Below are positions 8,970 to 30,323 of a stretch of DNA of 40,256 nt, one piece after another. Numbering within the stretch: the stretch's first letter is position 1; each line of letters starts with the position of its first letter. A program made the position numbers and the translations under genes. The DNA comes from a virus. The notes beneath the pieces are model-generated. The model worked only from the letters and a program-made list of their open reading frames with translations. It did not search any database and had not been told where the DNA came from. The stretch is taken from positions 1 to 40,256 of the IMG/VR virus record IMGVR_UViG_3300033143_001476, one strand, 5' to 3'.

Positions 8970-11234
8970 ATGCAAGTAGAGAAAAGAGACGGTTCTAAAG
9001 AAGATTTTTCAGTAGAAAAGATTCATCAAGTAGTAGAGTGGGCTACGAAAGGAATTAAAGACGTTTCATTTAGCGACATAGAAATGAACGCAAACCTGTC
9101 AATTTATGACGGAATATCCACGGTTGAAATTCACAACATACTAATCAAGTCCGCAAGTGACCTGATTGATCTATCCTCCCCAAACTATCAGTATGTTGCT
9201 GCCAATCTTGCGAACATGCAGTTAAGGAAAGATGTTTGGGGTTCTCATGATACACCACCAGACTTCGTTACGTTTCTACAGAACAATGTAGACAATGGAG
9301 TGTATGACGGAATACTAAACCCTGACCGAGAAGGGGGTTGGACTCAAGATCAAGTCAGAAGTTTGGGAAACTACATAAATTACGAAAGAGACAGTCTTTT
9401 TACGTTTTCTGGACTGCAACAGATGATAGATAAGTATCTTGTTAAAAACAGAAACACAGACAAGATATATGAAACACCTCAGCAGGCGTACATGTGCATC
9501 GCCATGTGTCTTTTTAACACAGAGGCAGAAGTAAAAGCGGCATATGACGCTTTCTCTACATTCAAAATAAATCTAGCAACCCCTGTGATGTGTGGTGTTA
9601 GAACAGTCAAGCGGCAATTTGCAAGCTGCGTTTTGGTTGATGTTGAAGACGACCTAGACGCTATCTTCTCATCAGTTCATGCCGTAGGAAAATATACGGC
9701 AAACAGGGCAGGTATCGGTCTTAATGTTGGAAGAATACGCCCAATGAACTCCCCGATTAGAGGTGGAGAAGTCATCCATACAGGCTTGATTCCATACCTA
9801 AAGTGTTTTGAAACTGCTGTAAAATCAACAACCCAAAACGGAATTCGCGGTGGAAGTGCCACGGTTCATATTCCTTTTTGGCATTACGAGATTGAAGATA
9901 TTATCGTTCTTAAAAACAACGCAGGAACAGACGACAATCGTGTTCGTAAGCTAGACTACAGTATCCAGTTCTGCAAGCTGTTCTACGAAAGATTAATGAA
10001 CAACGAAGAAATTACTCTGTTTAGTCCGCACGAAGCAGAAGGTTTGTATGAAGCATTTGGAGATAACGAAAAGTTTGAAAAGCTATACTTAAAGTACGAA
10101 TCTTCTAGGTCTATAAAGTTTAAGAAAAAAATTCCGGCAAGCAAACTCGCTTCTTCTTTTGCAAAAGAAAGGCTGGAAACTGGCAGAATTTATTCTATGA
10201 ATATTGATACTGCTAACGAGCATGGGTCTTGGAACGTGCCTGTTAAAATGAGCAACCTTTGTCAAGAAATTATCCATCCCACAAAGCCGATCTCATCAAT
10301 TGACGACGATGATGCTGAAATTGGCATTTGTATTTTGTCTGCAATTAATCTTTTAGAGTGTTCAAGCGAAAGAGAAATTGAAAAGGCTTGTGATATTGCA
10401 GTAAGGTCGTTGGACTCTATCATCGACTATCAAGATTACCCCGTAGTTGCCGGAGAAAGTTTTACAAAAAACAGAAGGTCGCTAGGTGTGGGAATAACAA
10501 ATCTAGCGGCCTTTTTAGCAAAACACAAGCTGGCCTACGGCGACCCTGAAGCACTAGAGCTAGTCCACGAAACAATGGAACAAATCCAATACTACCTAAT
10601 TAGTACGTCTTGCGATCTAGCAGAAGAGAAAGGTGCTTGCCCTAAATTTTCTGAAACCAAATATGCTGACGGGCTACTTCCCATCGACTGGTACAAGAAA
10701 ACCGTAGATGAGTTGGTAAAACCAGAGTATAATATGGACTGGGAAGGTTTACGAAAAAGAATTAGTGAAGTAGGAATGAGGCACTCCACCGTTTCTGCGA
10801 TGATGCCTTGCGAATCGTCAAGCGTGGTTCAAAATACAACTAACGGAATAGAACCGATTAGAAGCCACTTAACGTACAAAAAAGCTAAAAACGGAATGTT
10901 AAAAGTTATAGTCCCTAACTACAAGACTAGAAAGAAGTATTACACTATGGCTTGGGATATTACCGACAATAAGGTGCTGATGGACACAGCCGCTGTAATA
11001 CAAAAGTTTACAGACATGAGTATGTCAACCAACCTTTATTATAACTACGAGCACTATATTGCAGAAGGCGAAACTGAAGGTAATATTCCTCTCAGCGTGT
11101 TAATTCGAGATCAAATTTACGGATATAAATATGGCTTAAAGAATTTCTATTATGCAAATACTCCAGACGGAGATGGCGACACAGAAGAAGAACAGCAAGA
11201 CATGGGGTGCGAGTCAGGAGCGTGTGCGATATGA
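8970..11234 (+). CDS. nrdA: Class I ribonucleotide reductase, large (alpha) subunit
   Basis: 754 residues (E. coli NrdA 761). Reduces ribonucleoside diphosphates to deoxy forms together with NrdB. An N-terminal ATP-cone (about 1-90) suggests allosteric overall-activity control. Catalytic residues line up: redox pair Cys220 (FASCVLVD) and Cys454 (GICILSAIN); radical Cys431 with Asn429 and Glu433 in NLCQEI; radical-transfer Tyr727-Tyr728; and C-terminal redox cysteines 747 and 752. AAGGA ribosome site precedes ATG 8970. Its stop overlaps the next start (ATGA). No intein or intron interrupts it. Confidence 0.97.
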   Translation: MQVEKRDGSKEDFSVEKIHQVVEWATKGIKDVSFSDIEMNANLSIYDGISTVEIHNILIKSASDLIDLSSPNYQYVAANLANMQLRKDVWGSHDTPPDFVTFLQNNVDNGVYDGILNPDREGGWTQDQVRSLGNYINYERDSLFTFSGLQQMIDKYLVKNRNTDKIYETPQQAYMCIAMCLFNTEAEVKAAYDAFSTFKINLATPVMCGVRTVKRQFASCVLVDVEDDLDAIFSSVHAVGKYTANRAGIGLNVGRIRPMNSPIRGGEVIHTGLIPYLKCFETAVKSTTQNGIRGGSATVHIPFWHYEIEDIIVLKNNAGTDDNRVRKLDYSIQFCKLFYERLMNNEEITLFSPHEAEGLYEAFGDNEKFEKLYLKYESSRSIKFKKKIPASKLASSFAKERLETGRIYSMNIDTANEHGSWNVPVKMSNLCQEIIHPTKPISSIDDDDAEIGICILSAINLLECSSEREIEKACDIAVRSLDSIIDYQDYPVVAGESFTKNRRSLGVGITNLAAFLAKHKLAYGDPEALELVHETMEQIQYYLISTSCDLAEEKGACPKFSETKYADGLLPIDWYKKTVDELVKPEYNMDWEGLRKRISEVGMRHSTVSAMMPCESSSVVQNTTNGIEPIRSHLTYKKAKNGMLKVIVPNYKTRKKYYTMAWDITDNKVLMDTAAVIQKFTDMSMSTNLYYNYEHYIAEGETEGNIPLSVLIRDQIYGYKYGLKNFYYANTPDGDGDTEEEQQDMGCESGACAI

Positions 11235-11836
11235 ATAATTTAAGCAGAAGAGATTTTGGCAAGTGGATGGGGTCTTTGTGGGCTGCGGCGATGGCTCCAA
11301 TATCTGCCGTAAATGCCGTGTTGCCGAGCGTAGCAACGAAAACCTTTACTGATCCTAAAATTCTTAGCGTGAATGTGCATTGTTGTATTGATTTTGATGG
11401 ATTGTTTCAATTTCCGACCTCCCTAGAGTTGTATGACGATGATTGTATTCAGAACCAGAAAGTCGAAGTAAGCGTGGATTATTTATCAGAGGATGGTGAA
11501 TATTTTTACACGCTAGAATTCGCACGCACACTTTGTGAAAATATATGTGTTTTATCGCACAAGAAACTTGATAGCCATGTTTCGCAAAGCAGCGTTGTTG
11601 TTTACGATATACTTGGTAATCAGGTCTCATTTGAAAAATTAACGATAGGAGACCGCTACGATTTAGATGTGATTGTACCAGATTATGAAAATTCGTCTAG
11701 CTTGCTTATCATTAAAGACATGGAATTAGTAAAAATTACTGTCAAATCTACAGAAGAAGAAGAAGAAGAAGAAGAGGAAGAACAGGAAGATGATGAATAT
11801 TATAATGATTATGATCGTGATTACAACGAATACTAA
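11231..11836 (+). CDS. Tat-exported protein with polyglutamate tail
   Basis: 201 residues from ATG 11231, which overlaps the nrdA stop as ATGA; an upstream GTG/ATG start would spoil the leader. Residues 1-30 form a twin-arginine signal: SRRDFGK (residues 5-11), a moderately hydrophobic stretch, then a VNA cleavage-type site near 29. The mature part (about 35-165) looks beta-rich with several Cys, and the last 40 residues are almost all Glu/Asp/Tyr, including a (GAA)7 tract at 11753-11773. Tat substrates are exported folded, so this phage protein should act in the periplasm or at the cell surface. It sits between nrdA and nrdB. Function unknown. Confidence 0.75.
   Translation: MNNLSRRDFGKWMGSLWAAAMAPISAVNAVLPSVATKTFTDPKILSVNVHCCIDFDGLFQFPTSLELYDDDCIQNQKVEVSVDYLSEDGEYFYTLEFARTLCENICVLSHKKLDSHVSQSSVVVYDILGNQVSFEKLTIGDRYDLDVIVPDYENSSSLLIIKDMELVKITVKSTEEEEEEEEEEQEDDEYYNDYDRDYNEY
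11753..11773 (+). repeat. (GAA)7 trinucleotide tract
   Basis: Seven GAA codons in a row inside the acidic tail of the Tat-exported protein, continuing as a GAG/GAA/CAG mix. Slippage here changes the number of Glu residues without a frameshift. Confidence 0.85.
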
Positions 11837-11887
11837 AATCTAATGTCTGGGACTATAAAGCGATAAAAAGAACGGAGGACGAATAGG

Positions 11888-11992
11888 ATGGTAGCTTGGT
11901 GGCATTGTCCTGATTGCGGCAAGATAACAGATGAGTATGAGAGTTCAAGGTCAATTAAATGCCCTGAATGTAGGAAGAAAAATGAAAACTGA
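11888..11992 (+). CDS. 34-residue zinc-ribbon microprotein
   Basis: ATG 11888 is preceded by AACGGAGG (a strong ribosome site) and a frame of 34 codons ends in TGA at 11990-11992. It encodes two CxxC knuckles, CPDC (residues 7-10) and CPEC (25-28), spaced as in a minimal zinc ribbon, with a Lys-rich end. It overlaps the next gene by 11 bases. The combination of a strong ribosome site, regular Cys spacing and tight packing supports a real gene. Role unknown. Confidence 0.7.
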   Translation: MVAWWHCPDCGKITDEYESSRSIKCPECRKKNEN

Positions 11993-12284
11993 TAAACATG
12001 ATTTTATTAAGGTCAGCAACAAGGCACAACTAAAACTTATTAAAGATTTAAAAATAAAGCCTAAATTTTTAATACATAAAACCAAACCTAGTAAAAAAAT
12101 TCATATTTGGGGTTATGGCGACACATGGTGTAATTCGATAAAGTCTGGAGGCGTTTACCTTTCGGACTGGGATATTCTGCAAGATGATCTAGATTCAAAT
12201 CAGTCAGAGGCCGGACTTTGCAAAAACTGTACAAATAAAATTTTAAAAGAAAATATGGAGCACCTGTATGAAAACTATCTTTAA
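11982..12284 (+). CDS. Small zinc-binding-like protein, 100 residues
   Basis: ATG 11982 follows AGGAAG within the preceding microgene; an upstream in-frame start at 11931 lacks a ribosome site. The first 40 residues are Lys-rich and basic. The second half has HIWGYGDTWCNS and GLCKNC near residues 53-85, giving three Cys and a His that could form a treble-clef or ribbon zinc site. It overlaps nrdB by 17 bases, placing it in the nrd transcript. Function unknown. Confidence 0.6.
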   Translation: MKTDKHDFIKVSNKAQLKLIKDLKIKPKFLIHKTKPSKKIHIWGYGDTWCNSIKSGGVYLSDWDILQDDLDSNQSEAGLCKNCTNKILKENMEHLYENYL

Positions 12285-13341
12285 TACAAAAAACGTAGAC
12301 CCCTTGTCCCAACCTCTTTTTTTAGGTAAGGACTTAGGGGTTCAGCGTTACGATAAATTAAAATACCCTATCTTTAAACAGTTGGATTCAAAACAAATGG
12401 AAAAGTTTTGGAGGCCAGAAGAAATTGAGCTTAAAAAAGATAGAGCAGATTTTGCAACATTAAACGACAATGAAAAGTTTATTTTTACGAGCAATCTAAA
12501 ATATCAAACAATGCTAGATAGCGTTATTTGCAGAGGTGTGCCTACGCTTTTGGAATTCGTAACCAATTCTGAGCTTGAGGCGTGTTTAATGACATGGCAG
12601 TTCTTTGAAAAAATCCACAGCCAGTCTTACTCTTACATCATTCAGAATGTTTATTCTGATAGTAACGAGGTGTTTGATGGAATTTACGAAGATAAAGAGA
12701 TCATGAAGCGAGCAAAAAGTGCTATTGCTGACTATAATAATTTGATGGGCATGGCTTGCGATTCAAACAAGACCTCAGATATTAAAAAGCAAATCTACAT
12801 GACAGTAGTCAGCATTAACATACTTGAAGCCGTAAGGTTTTACGTTAGTTTTATATGTAGCTTTGCGTTTGCGGAAAATAAAAAGATGATTGGAAACGCA
12901 GATATAATCAAGCTGATCAAGCGTGACGAAGCATTGCATCTTGCAAATACGCAAGAGATACTAAAAATACTTCACAAAGAAGAAAGTGAAGGTTTTATAA
13001 CTACAGCAAAGCAATGTGAAGAGTCTGCCATACAGATGTTTGAAAGTGCTGCGAGGGAAGAAAAAGAATGGGCTAGTTACCTATTTAAAGATGGCTCTAT
13101 TATTGGACTCAACGAGCAAGTTTTACACCAATACATTGACTGGTTGTGCATGTCTCGTAGAAAAGCTATCGGCCTGCCTTACGAGAACGTAGGCAAAAAT
13201 CCGTTGAGGGGCTGGACTGAGCCTTGGATGAAATCCGAGAGTGTTCAGGTTGCACCTCAAGAAACAGAAATTTCAGCTTATAAAATCGGTGCTAGTAAAA
13301 ACGATATAGCTGGGATGGACTTTGGAGATATTAAATTGTAA
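12268..13341 (+). CDS. nrdB: Class I ribonucleotide reductase, small (beta) subunit
   Basis: 357 residues. It carries the di-iron/tyrosyl-radical cofactor that activates NrdA. Metal ligands are all visible and close to E. coli numbering: Asp84 (MLDS), Glu114 and His117 in EKIHSQSY, Glu187 (ILEAVR), Glu221 and His224 in DEALH. Radical Tyr121 is present, so it is the classical Tyr-radical type. The C-terminus GMDFGDIKL resembles the tail that docks NrdB onto NrdA. ATG 12268 overlaps the previous gene; its stop shares a base with the next ATG (TAATG). Confidence 0.97.
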   Translation: MKTIFNTKNVDPLSQPLFLGKDLGVQRYDKLKYPIFKQLDSKQMEKFWRPEEIELKKDRADFATLNDNEKFIFTSNLKYQTMLDSVICRGVPTLLEFVTNSELEACLMTWQFFEKIHSQSYSYIIQNVYSDSNEVFDGIYEDKEIMKRAKSAIADYNNLMGMACDSNKTSDIKKQIYMTVVSINILEAVRFYVSFICSFAFAENKKMIGNADIIKLIKRDEALHLANTQEILKILHKEESEGFITTAKQCEESAIQMFESAAREEKEWASYLFKDGSIIGLNEQVLHQYIDWLCMSRRKAIGLPYENVGKNPLRGWTEPWMKSESVQVAPQETEISAYKIGASKNDIAGMDFGDIKL

Positions 13342-16274: not shown

Positions 16275-16844
16275 ATGAAAATCACAAAAAGCGTAGAACA
16301 CAAACCGTGTTTAGTTTTAAATCAAGATTATTCACCGCTTTCTGTTATTAGCTGGAAGCGAGCAATTTGCTTGGAGATAATCGGTAAAGAAATAATTGGA
16401 GAAGGTGTCCGAGTTATAGAGTGGTATAGCGACGATTTTATCAAATCCTCTGGAGGGCATGATGATTGGATTCAGGTTCCTGCCGTTGCTGTATCAAATA
16501 GATTTGTAAAAAAGAGAAGAAAAATCAGGGTAAAGAAAAAGAATGTTTTGATTCGTGACAATCATCGTTGTCAATACTGCGGAACAAAGCTAGACAACAG
16601 GTCTGCTACAATTGACCATATCATTCCCAAGAGTAGGTTTAAGTCTAAAAAAGACAGTCATACGTGGGAAAATGTTGTTATATCTTGCACAAGATGTAAC
16701 TCAAGAAAAAGAGATAGAACTCCAAAAGAAGCAAATATGAAACTTCTTTCAGTCCCGAAAAAACCAGATTTAGTTTACTTTTTTTCAAAGCAACTTGCTT
16801 CTAAAAATATACCAAGCGAATGGAGGCTGTATGTTTCTTCATAG
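16275..16844 (+). CDS. HNH endonuclease
   Basis: 189 residues. The C-terminal HNH domain (about 85-155) shows CQYCG, DHIIPKSRF, the HNH Asn in ENVV, and a second zinc pair CTRCN, i.e. a zinc-stabilised beta-beta-alpha metal site. The N-terminal third carries a VLNQDYSPLSVISWKRAI stretch typical of a widespread chromosomal HNH family rather than of intron homing nucleases, so it may be a DNA processing, packaging or defence-type nuclease. It is the first gene after a terminator and promoter. Confidence 0.85.
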   Translation: MKITKSVEHKPCLVLNQDYSPLSVISWKRAICLEIIGKEIIGEGVRVIEWYSDDFIKSSGGHDDWIQVPAVAVSNRFVKKRRKIRVKKKNVLIRDNHRCQYCGTKLDNRSATIDHIIPKSRFKSKKDSHTWENVVISCTRCNSRKRDRTPKEANMKLLSVPKKPDLVYFFSKQLASKNIPSEWRLYVSS

Positions 16845-25923: not shown

Positions 25924-27807
25924 ATGTATACACCGCTTCACGTACACTCAGAATACAGTCTTTTGAACGGCTTGAGTAAATGCGATCAGATCGCAGAAAG
26001 AACAGAGAAAATCGGAGCAAAGGCATGTGCCTTGACCGATCACGCATCGGCTTCTGGTGCTGTTGATTTTTCCAGACAAATGAAAGACAGCGGACTAAAA
26101 CCTTTGCTGGGTTGCGAACTGTATGTCTGTATGGATGATCTAGCTGCAAACAAAGACCAAGCCAACAGGATCGGTCATCAAGTTATCATTGCTAAAAATT
26201 TACAGGGCTGGAAAGACCTACTTTGGGTGGTGTCAGAGTCGAACCTTAAAAAGAACCACAAAATTATTCCAAGGTCAGACATGGACATGATTGCTAAAGC
26301 TGGCAGTCAAAAGAATTTAATATCTTTTAGCGGTCACGCTGGCTCTATTCTAGCAAAAGCAATATCAGAAAATGACAGACTGACTCCAGACTGGATGAAG
26401 AATGGTTGCTATATGGCTAGACAGCTTGAGACCATGTTTGGAAAGGGAAACTTCTTTATTGAAATCCAAATGATAGATGCTAAAATAAACAAGTTTGCAG
26501 GTATGCTCGCAAACGCACTAAGGCAGATATCTAAAGCTACTGGCATCCCGTGTGTTGCTACTCCCGATGCCCATTATTGCGAAAGAGACGATGCAGAAGA
26601 TCATCATGTTCTTTTATGCACCAAAGAGAAAAAGAGCAAAGATCACCTGATTCGTGACATTAAGATGGGTAGAGGAAGCAAGACCATTGATACTTTCTTC
26701 AGGTCTAACAACTACCATATTCCATCCTACGAAGATATGGTTCAAGTTCATACAGCAGAGGAACTAGCTAACACTAATCTGATTGCAGACATGTGCGAGG
26801 ACTTTAGTATTCTAAAGCCACCTGCACCGCCAGAATTTAAATGTCCAAACGGAATGTCTCCAGCAGAATACTTGAGAAAGTTAAGCAGAGATGGTTGGGC
26901 AAAAAAGATGGGTCACATTACATCGGAACATCCTGACTTTGAAAAGTACGGCGAACGAGTCAATAGTGAACTAGACATTTTTACTTCTATCGGACTATCT
27001 AGTTACTTCTTGATTGTTAATGATATTCTTAACTTTGTAAGAAGCAAGGGATATATTGTTGGCCCGGGAAGAGGTTCTGCTGCTGGATGTATGGTGTCAA
27101 ACCTACTAGGCATCACTCAAGTTGATCCTATTAAGTACAATCTAATCTTTGAGCGTTTTTATAACGCAGGAAGAAACTCGCCCGGAAAAATATCTTGGCC
27201 TGACATTGACTTTGATATTCCAAAGATCGCTAGAGACGATACAATCAACTACATTAAAGATAAATACGGAGAGTATAATGTTGCTCAAATCCAGACTTTC
27301 CAAAAACTAAAAGGAAGGGCTTCTTTAACAAGGGTTATGGCAGCAAGAGGCAATATCGGATTTGCCGAACAAAAAGAAATTACAAAATGTATTCCAGAAG
27401 AACACAAGGTTACAGATGAATTGAAAGAAATTGAAGATGAGCATGGTTTTTCTTCAAGTATTCTGTGGGCGTTGGAGTATAATTCCAAAGCGGTAAAGCC
27501 TTGGTGTCACTTAGGAAAAGACGGCAAACTTGAAGGGCCGATGGCAAAAATCTTCGAGCAGGCAATTAGGCTTGAAAATACTAAGATTCAATCGGGTACT
27601 CATGCTGCTGGAATTGTTATTTCCAACAATCCAATTAGCGAGTCTTGTCCGATGGTTTTAGATGTTAAGGGAAAGGCTTATCTTGCTGGATATGATGGGC
27701 CAAGTTGCGAGGATTCAGGATTACTTAAACTAGATTGCTTGTCGTTAAGCTCTCTGGATAAAATAATGGACGTTGTTAAAATAGTTGGAGGAGATCATAA
27801 ATGTTAG
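25924..27807 (+). CDS. DNA polymerase III alpha, N-terminal part (PHP + palm)
   Basis: 627 residues. N-terminal PHP domain: His6/His8 in LHVHSEYSLL, Asp39/His40 in LTDHA, and a PDAHY motif near 214. Then the family-C palm: GPGRGSAAG (380-388), catalytic Asp427 and Asp429 in PDIDFD, and Asp604 in LLKLDCLSL. It stops 23 residues after the third catalytic Asp, before the fingers. The remaining motifs are in a separate gene at 28695. Both chains must associate for activity (inference). No intein motif at the break. Its end holds the next gene's ribosome site. Confidence 0.93.
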   Translation: MYTPLHVHSEYSLLNGLSKCDQIAERTEKIGAKACALTDHASASGAVDFSRQMKDSGLKPLLGCELYVCMDDLAANKDQANRIGHQVIIAKNLQGWKDLLWVVSESNLKKNHKIIPRSDMDMIAKAGSQKNLISFSGHAGSILAKAISENDRLTPDWMKNGCYMARQLETMFGKGNFFIEIQMIDAKINKFAGMLANALRQISKATGIPCVATPDAHYCERDDAEDHHVLLCTKEKKSKDHLIRDIKMGRGSKTIDTFFRSNNYHIPSYEDMVQVHTAEELANTNLIADMCEDFSILKPPAPPEFKCPNGMSPAEYLRKLSRDGWAKKMGHITSEHPDFEKYGERVNSELDIFTSIGLSSYFLIVNDILNFVRSKGYIVGPGRGSAAGCMVSNLLGITQVDPIKYNLIFERFYNAGRNSPGKISWPDIDFDIPKIARDDTINYIKDKYGEYNVAQIQTFQKLKGRASLTRVMAARGNIGFAEQKEITKCIPEEHKVTDELKEIEDEHGFSSSILWALEYNSKAVKPWCHLGKDGKLEGPMAKIFEQAIRLENTKIQSGTHAAGIVISNNPISESCPMVLDVKGKAYLAGYDGPSCEDSGLLKLDCLSLSSLDKIMDVVKIVGGDHKC

Positions 27808-28010
27808 AATTTAGAAATGATATGCTAAAATTATCACAAAAGTACCCAAGTATACTCAAGGTTGTTGTTACAAAAGAAGCGTGGACTCTTCTTTGCTCTT
27901 CTTTCGACTCTACTCTTGGAAATGCTGAAGGTGAGGTTGAGGCTCATATCAAAGAAAACAGTGGGTCTATGCGATTCGAAAATTTGTTCGTGGAGGCTGA
28001 AGATGCCTAA
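27801..28010 (+). CDS. Unknown 69-residue protein in the polymerase gap
   Basis: ATG 27801 follows GGAGGAGATC, a strong ribosome site inside the end of the polymerase N-part; it overlaps that gene by 7 bases and the exonuclease by 8. Hydrophilic, helical at the N-terminus, acidic at the C-terminus. Its fixed place between two polymerase pieces suggests a replication accessory or a spacer, but no motif is visible. Confidence 0.6.
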   Translation: MLEFRNDMLKLSQKYPSILKVVVTKEAWTLLCSSFDSTLGNAEGEVEAHIKENSGSMRFENLFVEAEDA

Positions 28011-28698
28011 AAACACAAGATGGATATTAACTTTTGACTTTGAAACAGATTTGCCAGATTCAGAACTGTGCAACCCTGTGCAGCTTGCGGCTGTTCCAAT
28101 CAATCCAGAGACCTTGGAAGTCAAAAAAGAAAACGCTTTTAATGTAATGATCAAGCCCGAAGGAATTGATTCTCCAGAATATTTTGATCATCCTAAAAGA
28201 CAGGGGACAATCGACTGGCACGCTAAAAACTATGGTGTTACTTCTGACGAAATCATAGAGAGGTGGAAGAACGGCGTTGACCCCAAGGTTGCTTGGAAAA
28301 ACTTTTGCACATATTGCAGCAAGTATGAAGTTGACAAAAAACGTGGGCAATGGTATACTGAGCCAATTCCGGCAGGATATAATATTGTTGGGTTTGATAT
28401 TCCGATTGCAGAAAGACTTTGTAAAAAATATAAGACAAAGATGCCTTTCTCTAAGGTAAACAAGCTGGATGCGATGGACATGCTTTTCTGGTGGTTTGAA
28501 AGTCTTGAAGAACCTAACGACTTTAAGATGGATACATGGAGAGATTTCTTTGCTATCAAGCGGATGGGTGGTATTGCTCACGATGCCGTTACTGATGTTC
28601 TTGAAGAGTCTGCAATTATTACTAGATTTATGAAGTTTCACAGGATGCAATCGTCTGTTGCTAAGTTTAAGCACTCTTTTGCAGGGGTTAAAATATGA
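28003..28698 (+). CDS. DnaQ-type 3'-5' exonuclease (DEDDh)
   Basis: 231 residues from ATG 28003, preceded by GGAGG. The exonuclease acids are Asp12 and Glu14 (FDFET), Asp132 (GFDIP), and the His193/Asp198 motif HDAVTD, i.e. the DEDDh proofreading type. It lies exactly in the gap between the two polymerase III alpha parts and overlaps the second by four bases, arguing for a proofreading role in the same holoenzyme. Confidence 0.88.
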   Translation: MPKNTRWILTFDFETDLPDSELCNPVQLAAVPINPETLEVKKENAFNVMIKPEGIDSPEYFDHPKRQGTIDWHAKNYGVTSDEIIERWKNGVDPKVAWKNFCTYCSKYEVDKKRGQWYTEPIPAGYNIVGFDIPIAERLCKKYKTKMPFSKVNKLDAMDMLFWWFESLEEPNDFKMDTWRDFFAIKRMGGIAHDAVTDVLEESAIITRFMKFHRMQSSVAKFKHSFAGVKI

Positions 28699-30323
28699 TA
28701 GAGTTTGAGTGCGGTTGTAAGTTTAAAAAAAACGAACAGGGATTTTATGAGTTCAATCCAAACATCGAATCTCTTCCCCTTGAGTGCGAAGCAACTTGGG
28801 ATATGATTTGCGATGGTAACACCAAAGGTGTTTTTCAGCTAGAGTCGCAGCTTGGTCAAAGCAAAGCCAAGCAGGTTGCTCCTAGAAGTATTGAAGAATT
28901 GTCTGACCTTGTTGCTATTATTAGGCCGGGATGTGGAGACGCTATAGTTAAAGGAAAGTCTTTGACCCAGCACTACATCGACCGCAAATCTGGATTAGAC
29001 CCTGTGGAATACGAACCTGATGTTAGGTTGAAACCTATTCTGGAGCCTACCTATGGTATTTTGGTTTATCAAGAGCAGGCGATGCAGATAGCTCAGTTAG
29101 TAGCAGGTTTCTCTTTGCAGCAGGCTGATAATTTAAGAAAGGCTATCGGTAAAAAGAACGTAGAACTTATGGCTAAGGTTAAGTCAGACTTCTTGAAAGG
29201 TGCTGAAGAATCAGGTGATTACACGGAAAGAGATGCCGAAGAGATTTTTAGCTGGATTGAAAAGTCTCAAAAGTATTCTTTTAATAAATCTCACTCTATC
29301 AGCTACGCACTTAACGCCTATCAAACAGCCTACGCAAAGCACCACTTTTCTGACGAGTTTTTTACTTCTTATTTAAGACACGCGAAAGACAAGCAGAAGC
29401 CATTTATCGAGGTTGCGGAACTTATAAACAACGCAAAGATCATGTCGGTGGAAGTGAATCCTCCTAGTATTAAAAACATGAACGCCAATTTCTCTTACAT
29501 TAATAATGGGCCAACATTTGGTCTCGTAGATATTAAAAATGTAGGACAGTCTGTTTATGACAAGCTATATGGCTATATCGAAAGCAAAGGACTGGATATT
29601 GAAAATATGAATTGGGAACAGTTTTTGATGCGATGCGGAAGACACATCAAGTCTAATTCGTTCCAATCCATGATTATCTCTGGTTCTCTAGACTGCTATA
29701 AGGTAGATAGAAATGAAATGCTTCATCATTTTAGCATATATAAAGAGCTTAAAGACAATGACAAGGTTTTCTTGGAAGAGTGTCAGTCTACCAGTCTTGT
29801 TGAATGTATAGCTCAAAGAATTGCTTGGGTTATGGAAAATCAAAATGATGGAGTTAATAGAAGAAAGAAACTAGCATTACTAGAAGGCTCTTTATCTTCT
29901 ATCGAAAACCCGCCCTACAGCCTAAAAGACTCTTGGGGTTGGCGGGCTAAAGGCGAGAGAGATAATTTGGGAATTGAAGTTACATGCTACGAGCTAGACG
30001 AGTACAACATGTTCGGTTCAAATTGCACCTGTAGAGAGTATTACTCAGGATTTACCGCTGATTCTATATCAATAGCTGCAAGAGTAGACGACATACGCGA
30101 ATGGAAAATTCGTGGAGGTCAGCATAAAGGTGAAGTTATGGCATTTTTAAAAATATCTGATTCAACTTGTGCTTTGGATAATGTGACTGTTTTTTCTGAC
30201 GATTGGGCAAAAATTAAAAAGAACACCAATATAGGGTCTTTTTTGATGCTTAAAGGCGAAAGAGACAAAAAAAGAGGAAGTTTTTTGGTTAAGAGAGTAC
30301 AAAAGCTGAAACACTGTATATAA
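28695..30323 (+). CDS. DNA polymerase III alpha, C-terminal part (fingers + OB)
   Basis: 542 residues. Begins just before the fingers: GVFQLES (about 46-52), then the RPG segment, the EPTYGILVYQEQAMQIAQL stretch, and FNKSHSISYALNAYQTAY. The helix-hairpin-helix-like region and a C-terminal OB fold (about 445-530) follow. It supplies the nucleotide-binding and DNA-binding parts missing from the gene at 25924. A Cys-containing N-terminal extension (CGCKF) fills the junction. Starts by ATGA overlap with the exonuclease. Confidence 0.9.
   Translation: MIEFECGCKFKKNEQGFYEFNPNIESLPLECEATWDMICDGNTKGVFQLESQLGQSKAKQVAPRSIEELSDLVAIIRPGCGDAIVKGKSLTQHYIDRKSGLDPVEYEPDVRLKPILEPTYGILVYQEQAMQIAQLVAGFSLQQADNLRKAIGKKNVELMAKVKSDFLKGAEESGDYTERDAEEIFSWIEKSQKYSFNKSHSISYALNAYQTAYAKHHFSDEFFTSYLRHAKDKQKPFIEVAELINNAKIMSVEVNPPSIKNMNANFSYINNGPTFGLVDIKNVGQSVYDKLYGYIESKGLDIENMNWEQFLMRCGRHIKSNSFQSMIISGSLDCYKVDRNEMLHHFSIYKELKDNDKVFLEECQSTSLVECIAQRIAWVMENQNDGVNRRKKLALLEGSLSSIENPPYSLKDSWGWRAKGERDNLGIEVTCYELDEYNMFGSNCTCREYYSGFTADSISIAARVDDIREWKIRGGQHKGEVMAFLKISDSTCALDNVTVFSDDWAKIKKNTNIGSFLMLKGERDKKRGSFLVKRVQKLKHCI

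What the first reader, a model, noticed from the sequence alone, without database searches (positions are those of the whole stretch)
25924..30323. Polymerase III alpha split in two, with an exonuclease gene in the gap and no intein
The sequence shows PHP domain and all three palm Asp (427, 429, 604) in one gene, fingers and OB fold in another, and a DEDDh exonuclease plus a 69-residue ORF between them. The break falls just after the third catalytic Asp, not at the known cyanobacterial intein site near the FNKSHS motif, and neither terminus carries intein blocks. So two chains and a proofreading subunit probably assemble into one enzyme, a natural split-polymerase design.
Basis: partly seen in the sequence, partly recalled or inferred. 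Interest (0 to 1): 0.85.

Follow-up and report, generated by a model that had tools for sequence, protein, structure and literature searches.

The report
Phage replicase in two genes, proofreader between
A large group of uncultured phages encodes its DNA-copying enzyme as two separate proteins, broken between two of its domains, with the gene for an error-correcting exonuclease always lying between the two halves, so the working enzyme very probably assembles from three chains.

Summary
In this 40-kb virus fragment the DnaE-type polymerase III alpha is encoded by two genes: N chain 25924-27807 (PHP, palm, all three catalytic Asp) and C chain 28695-30323 (fingers, HhH, OB). A DEDDh exonuclease (28003-28698) and a 69-aa ORF lie between. 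Nothing of the canonical polymerase core is missing at the break, which falls in a variable-length loop between palm and fingers. There is no room for an intein, no Rfam intron, and a frameshift cannot bridge about 0.9 kb. The arrangement is not a one-off. In 93 IMG/VR contigs (56 non-redundant sets, down to about 35% identity) the same break always holds the same exonuclease. Catalytic residues are invariant, dN/dS is 0.01-0.08, and 16 contigs of 92-224 kb carry no detectable Pol A, Pol B or separate DnaE. The likeliest reading is a non-covalent heterodimeric replicase plus a proofreading subunit. Assembly itself was not tested. The 69-aa ORF is not conserved. A sister group shares the break with other genes in the gap. 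A second abundant lineage has an exonuclease inside a different break (PHP | palm). Split phage Pol III alpha has been reported before; the lineage-wide polymerase-exonuclease-polymerase operon appears new in the papers I could search.

The parts
25924..27807 (+). DnaE N chain: PHP + palm/thumb, catalytic D427, D429, D604; 627 aa; own Shine-Dalgarno (GGAGG)
   Evidence: AF2 pLDDT 85.6, pTM 0.85, Foldseek to M. tuberculosis/Taq/E. coli alpha
27801..28010 (+). 69-aa ORF overlapping the N stop by 7 nt; kept only in close relatives, replaced by other small ORFs elsewhere
   Evidence: no Pfam/PHROG match
28003..28698 (+). DEDDh (DnaQ-like) 3'-5' exonuclease, 231 aa; D12 E14 D132 H193 D198
   Evidence: always in the gap of the clade
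28695..30323 (+). DnaE C chain: fingers (YQEQ, FNKSH), HhH, OB; 542 aa; starts ATGA-overlapped with the exonuclease stop
   Evidence: AF2 pLDDT 90.0, pTM 0.82, Foldseek to alpha fingers to OB
28695..28790 (+). new N-terminal cap of the C chain with CxC...C (C6, C8, C31), about 20 residues more than intact DnaE
   Evidence: 48 of 56 sets by pattern; 3 more with other spacing

Best explanation
This is the replicative polymerase of a phage lineage: a C-family DnaE enzyme whose gene was broken in two at the palm/fingers boundary. Shown: two separately started, overlapping, co-directional genes that together hold the whole polymerase core, with a DEDDh exonuclease gene between them, conserved throughout the lineage. 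Inferred: the N chain (PHP, palm, catalytic Asp) and C chain (fingers, HhH, OB) fold as separate domains and dock non-covalently through the palm-fingers interface that is intramolecular in ordinary DnaE; the Cys-rich cap on the C chain stabilises the new terminus; the exonuclease binds this complex as its epsilon-like proofreading subunit; and the overlapping operon keeps the three chains in step. In the window the PHP nuclease is probably dead (N15 at the M. tuberculosis D23 position), leaving the DEDDh enzyme as the proofreader.
For: Same break and same exonuclease in 93 named IMG/VR contigs, 56 non-redundant sets, and 71 of 78 loci in a wider scan. Catalytic residues invariant in N, exo and C. 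dN/dS 0.01-0.08 in all three. Exo and C genes overlap in 38 of 50 non-redundant loci. Pairwise distances of N, C and exo correlate at 0.92-0.95, permutation maximum 0.29. One DnaE per genome and no Pol A, Pol B or beta-clamp family in 16 contigs of 92-224 kb; where found, the RNase_T exonuclease is the gap gene. Both chains modelled alone with confidence and matching alpha structures. The junction is a variable-length loop in intact phage DnaEs. Precedent: split gp43A/43B of Aeromonas phage 25 co-purify and polymerise (PMC2988022).
Against: No complex was modelled or tested. N-chain confidence is low around residues 410-430 and after 610, so part of the active-site side may need the C chain. 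Correlated distances are also expected from simple co-inheritance. In a sister group with the same break the gap holds other genes (RNase HII; dUTPase + thymidine kinase), so adjacency does not prove that the exonuclease is a subunit. Records are linear fragments of unknown completeness.
Confidence: 0.8

Rival explanations
1. The halves assemble into the polymerase, but the exonuclease in the gap is cargo: a gene that entered the break and stayed through operon linkage, acting elsewhere (recombination, nucleotide scavenging).
For: The gap is a general insertion site: homing-endonuclease-like genes, a GT47-like gene and MazG/UDG-like ORFs in clade A; RNase HII in L092, dUTPase and thymidine kinase in L281/L283. 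The homologous exonuclease in Bacteroides phage SJC03 lies beside a terminase-like gene.
Against: In clade A the exonuclease is never missing, keeps DEDDh residues without exception and co-varies with the polymerase; it matches PHROG 'DNA polymerase exonuclease subunit'. A second lineage has a DEDDh exonuclease in a different DnaE break.
Confidence: 0.15
2. The two chains are joined after all, by a trans-splicing intein, an intron, or recoding, giving one ordinary alpha subunit.
For: Split inteins are known in cyanobacterial DnaE, and this family does carry an intein elsewhere (L281, GPGRG motif).
Against: 8-22 and 14-44 terminal residues leave no room for intein halves; no Rfam family in the gap even at E<=1; 0.7-2.9 kb with other genes between; separate Shine-Dalgarno sites.
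Confidence: 0.03
3. The locus is a decaying or repurposed polymerase and the phage is copied by the host replicase.
For: No beta-clamp binding motif recognised and no tau-binding C-terminal domain; N15 in the window PHP site.
Against: Invariant catalytic residues and dN/dS of 0.01-0.08 over deep divergence; DnaB-like helicase, primase, UvsX and RNR in the same window.
Confidence: 0.04

Closest known systems
Split minimal Pol III alpha of group 2.2 jumbo phages (Iyer et al. 2021, PMC7824862)
   Same: C-family phage polymerase in two chains predicted to reconstitute
   Different: There the genes are distant, only the catalytic and template-binding cores remain (no PHP), and a family B polymerase coexists; here full-domain halves, one operon, nested exonuclease, no Pol B found
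Microbacterium cluster EF phages (AnnaSerena gp56/gp57, PMC7302621, L266)
   Same: DnaE encoded by two adjacent genes in an isolated phage
   Different: Break is PHP | palm, no exonuclease between
Rossellomorea phage phiT1 gp20/gp18 (PV767480, L086)
   Same: Break at the same palm/fingers boundary, annotated as two alpha subunits
   Different: Only a 50-aa ORF in the gap, no Cys cap; lies elsewhere in the tree, so an independent split
T4-type genes-in-pieces (gp43A/43B, Aeh1 NrdA; PMC2988022)
   Same: Essential phage enzyme split into chains that reassemble
   Different: Family B polymerase or RNR, linked to homing endonucleases or untranslated insertions in few phages; here C-family, deep and lineage-wide, exonuclease in the gap
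PolC and Bacteroidetes DnaE1 with fused exonuclease (PMC3919608)
   Same: DEDDh proofreader tied to a C-family polymerase
   Different: Exonuclease is inside or fused to one chain; here a separate gene between two polymerase chains

Membership tests
DnaE-type C-family polymerase | PHP + palm with three catalytic Asp and GPGRGSAAG | tested here: met
   N chain
DnaE-type C-family polymerase | fingers with YQEQ/FNKSH, HhH, OB | tested here: met
   C chain; OB weak in Pfam but clear in model
DnaE-type C-family polymerase | single polypeptide | tested here: not met
   two genes
DnaE-type C-family polymerase | beta-clamp binding motif | tested here: not met
   no conserved QxxLF-like motif in C chains; consensus scan only
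DnaQ/epsilon DEDDh proofreading exonuclease | DxE...D...HxxxxD motifs | tested here: met
   D12 E14 D132 H193 D198 invariant; profile hits PolC exo, ExoI, DnaQ structures
DnaQ/epsilon DEDDh proofreading exonuclease | binds alpha | not testable with these tools
   no complex prediction offered
Split DnaE intein (cyanobacterial type) | intein halves at the break | tested here: not met
Group I/II intron | ribozyme in the gap | tested here: not met
Homing-endonuclease genes-in-pieces | homing endonuclease at the break | tested here: not met
   none in the window gap; present in a few relatives only
Jumbo-phage minimal split Pol III alpha | unlinked genes, no PHP, Pol B present | tested here: not met
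   adjacent genes and PHP present; no Pol B in 16 relatives

The most novel reading that the evidence does not exclude
The exonuclease is not only a proofreader but the assembly factor of the enzyme: made between the two halves, it bridges them, so that a polymerase without its proofreader cannot form and fidelity is built into assembly. The recurrence of an exonuclease inside two different DnaE breaks (palm|fingers here, PHP|palm in lineage B) would then be selection for co-translational assembly.
Probability: 0.15. Interest if true: 0.85.

Novelty: new variant of a known kind. Interest (0 to 1): 0.62.

Why it matters
It would be a deep, lineage-wide and apparently obligate split of a family C replicative polymerase at a domain boundary, with its proofreader in the same operon. 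That gives a natural set of split points for building split polymerases, and a way to ask whether gene order drives assembly of multi-chain enzymes. It also warns that one-gene marker searches will read such phages as carrying truncated polymerases.

Tried and rejected
(1) Intein, intron or recoding at the break: rejected. (2) Assembly error: rejected by recurrence in independent metagenomes. (3) The 69-aa ORF as a theta-like third subunit: not conserved beyond close relatives. (4) Close relatives among isolated phages: none; best INPHARED identity about 34% for N and about 31% for C, and no hit for the window's exonuclease. (5) Host from GTDB contigs: hits are short phage contigs binned with unrelated MAGs, not informative. 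(6) In one search I used a wrong exonuclease frame; corrected. (7) Common origin of the exonucleases of lineages A and B: both are DEDDh (profile-profile probability 87.5%), but shared descent specific to the two was not established. (8) Paper searches found no description of this operon; the library omits most subscription papers.

Full report
THE OBSERVATION. The window is a linear IMG/VR virus fragment of 40,256 bases. Four co-directional genes with overlapping ends lie at 25924-30323: N chain, 69-aa ORF, exonuclease, C chain. Each of the four starts is preceded by a Shine-Dalgarno-like stretch. Pfam finds PHP and DNA_pol3_alpha in the N chain, and DNA_pol3_finger, HHH_6 and a weak OB fold in the C chain. 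Against solved structures the N chain aligns to Taq alpha up to residue 634 and the C chain from 645 on. The core is therefore covered without loss, and the split protein has about 20 more residues at the junction than an intact one.

WHERE THE BREAK IS. D427, D429 and D604 match the three catalytic aspartates, and the N chain ends 23 residues after D604. In intact phage and bacterial DnaEs the corresponding stretch is a loop of variable length between the last palm helix and the first fingers motif, a permissive place for a break. The two chains, modelled separately, give confident folds: C pLDDT 90.0, pTM 0.82; N pLDDT 85.6, pTM 0.85, low near 410-430 and after 610. Both match bacterial alpha structures.

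NOT SPLICED. After the last conserved N-chain motif 8-22 residues remain, and 14-44 precede the first conserved C-chain motif, over 56 non-redundant sets; intein halves do not fit. Rfam finds nothing in the gap at E<=1. Real mobile elements in this family are recognised elsewhere. L281 carries an in-frame intein at GPGRG. L029-L032, L035, L044 and L045 carry a LAGLIDADG gene that breaks the N chain once more at the PDIDFD motif.

LINEAGE-WIDE. A scan of IMG/VR with the C chain, and another with a divergent member, gave 93 differently named contigs with both halves. All are split at this place and all have the exonuclease in the gap. The scans keep only the best 80 matches, so this is a sample. 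A wider alignment-based scan gave 71 split with exonuclease out of 78 newly scored loci, partly the same contigs. In 56 non-redundant sets the polymerase Asp residues and the DEDDh residues are invariant. dN/dS is 0.01-0.08 where dS is measurable. Most loci have the exonuclease stop overlapping the C start, 38 of 50. In 16 contigs of 92-224 kb no family A or B polymerase and no beta clamp was found, while DnaE was found in every one. L149's record is frame-broken. The RNase_T match in these contigs lies in the DnaE gap; in two contigs Pfam misses it, though the clade profile finds it.

RELATIVES. A maximum-likelihood tree puts the clade together at 100/100. A sister group, 96/95, holds L092, L280, L281 and L283, split at the same boundary but with RNase HII, or dUTPase and thymidine kinase, or unassigned ORFs in the gap. 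It also holds one unsplit member, L284. Either the break is ancestral to both groups (92/91) and L284 re-fused, or the break arose more than once; the tree does not decide. No RNase_T exonuclease was found in the sister-group records, the largest 177 kb. Reading their N chains by eye, L092, L280 and L283 appear to keep the canonical PHP metal ligands including a Cys where clade A has His138; this was not tested formally.

A SECOND, DIFFERENT BREAK. Lineage B (L093 and relatives) has PHP fragment | DEDDh exonuclease | small ORF | palm-fingers-OB, complete in 70 of 80 loci. It is placed next to clade A and its sister at 95/91 in one tree and 91/73 in the other. Among isolated phages, Rossellomorea phage phiT1 is split at the same palm/fingers boundary with only a 50-aa ORF between, independently by the tree. 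Bacillus phage vB_BauM_KLEB27-3 and Alicyclobacillus phage MMB025 are broken further in by endonuclease genes. Microbacterium phage AnnaSerena is split PHP | palm.

MECHANISM. The best-supported reading is a heterodimeric polymerase whose halves dock through the palm-fingers contact, with the exonuclease as proofreading subunit. The C chain has gained a short cap with CxC...C in 48 of 56 sets by one pattern, and in three more with other spacing; a metal site is a guess. The window has Asn at the position of M. tuberculosis Asp23, whose D23N change abolishes PHP nuclease activity (PMC5636811), whereas 51 of 56 members keep Asp. So in this phage the DEDDh enzyme is the likely proofreader. What remains inference: that the chains bind each other, that the exonuclease binds them, and that gene order matters for assembly.

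WHAT IS KNOWN. A split minimal Pol III alpha with distant genes and a co-resident family B polymerase was described in jumbo phages (PMC7824862). Two-gene alpha subunits were noted in Microbacterium cluster EF phages (PMC7302621). Split family B polymerase chains of Aeromonas phage 25 co-purify and are active (PMC2988022). So the idea of a split phage polymerase is not new. The conserved operon with a nested exonuclease, and its depth, appear to be.

Noticed in passing
L093, L186-L265: Second abundant uncultured lineage with DnaE split PHP | palm and a DEDDh exonuclease plus small ORF in the gap.
   Followed up: partly
L030:4396-5247 (also L029, L031, L032, L035, L044, L045): LAGLIDADG gene inserted at the PDIDFD palm motif; the following piece restarts at ATG 5217 with a ~90-residue new N-terminus, so the polymerase would be in three pieces; no intron found by Rfam.
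   Followed up: partly
L281:649-3900: In-frame intein with LAGLIDADG motif inside the GPGRGSAAG motif of the N chain.
   Followed up: partly
L284:4108-7089: Unsplit DnaE nested among split relatives: possible natural re-fusion.
   Followed up: partly
L281:3890-5899, L283:4076-5941: dUTPase, PD-(D/E)XK-like ORF, zinc-ribbon ORF and thymidine kinase occupy the same DnaE gap instead of the exonuclease.
   Followed up: partly
window 25924-27807, residue 15: N15 where nearly all relatives have Asp at a PHP metal-ligand position; PHP nuclease probably inactive in this phage.
   Followed up: yes
L269, L270: Two phage contigs with this operon (about 70% exonuclease identity to the window) binned in a Lokiarchaeota MAG; probably misbinned, host unknown.
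   Followed up: no
L088:7983-10307: Bacteroides phage SJC03 has a distant homologue of the exonuclease directly upstream of a terminase-like gene.
   Followed up: no
window 16275-16844: HNH endonuclease gene near the UvsX and helicase region.
   Followed up: no
window 8970-13341: Class I ribonucleotide reductase large and small subunit genes with small unassigned ORFs between them.
   Followed up: no
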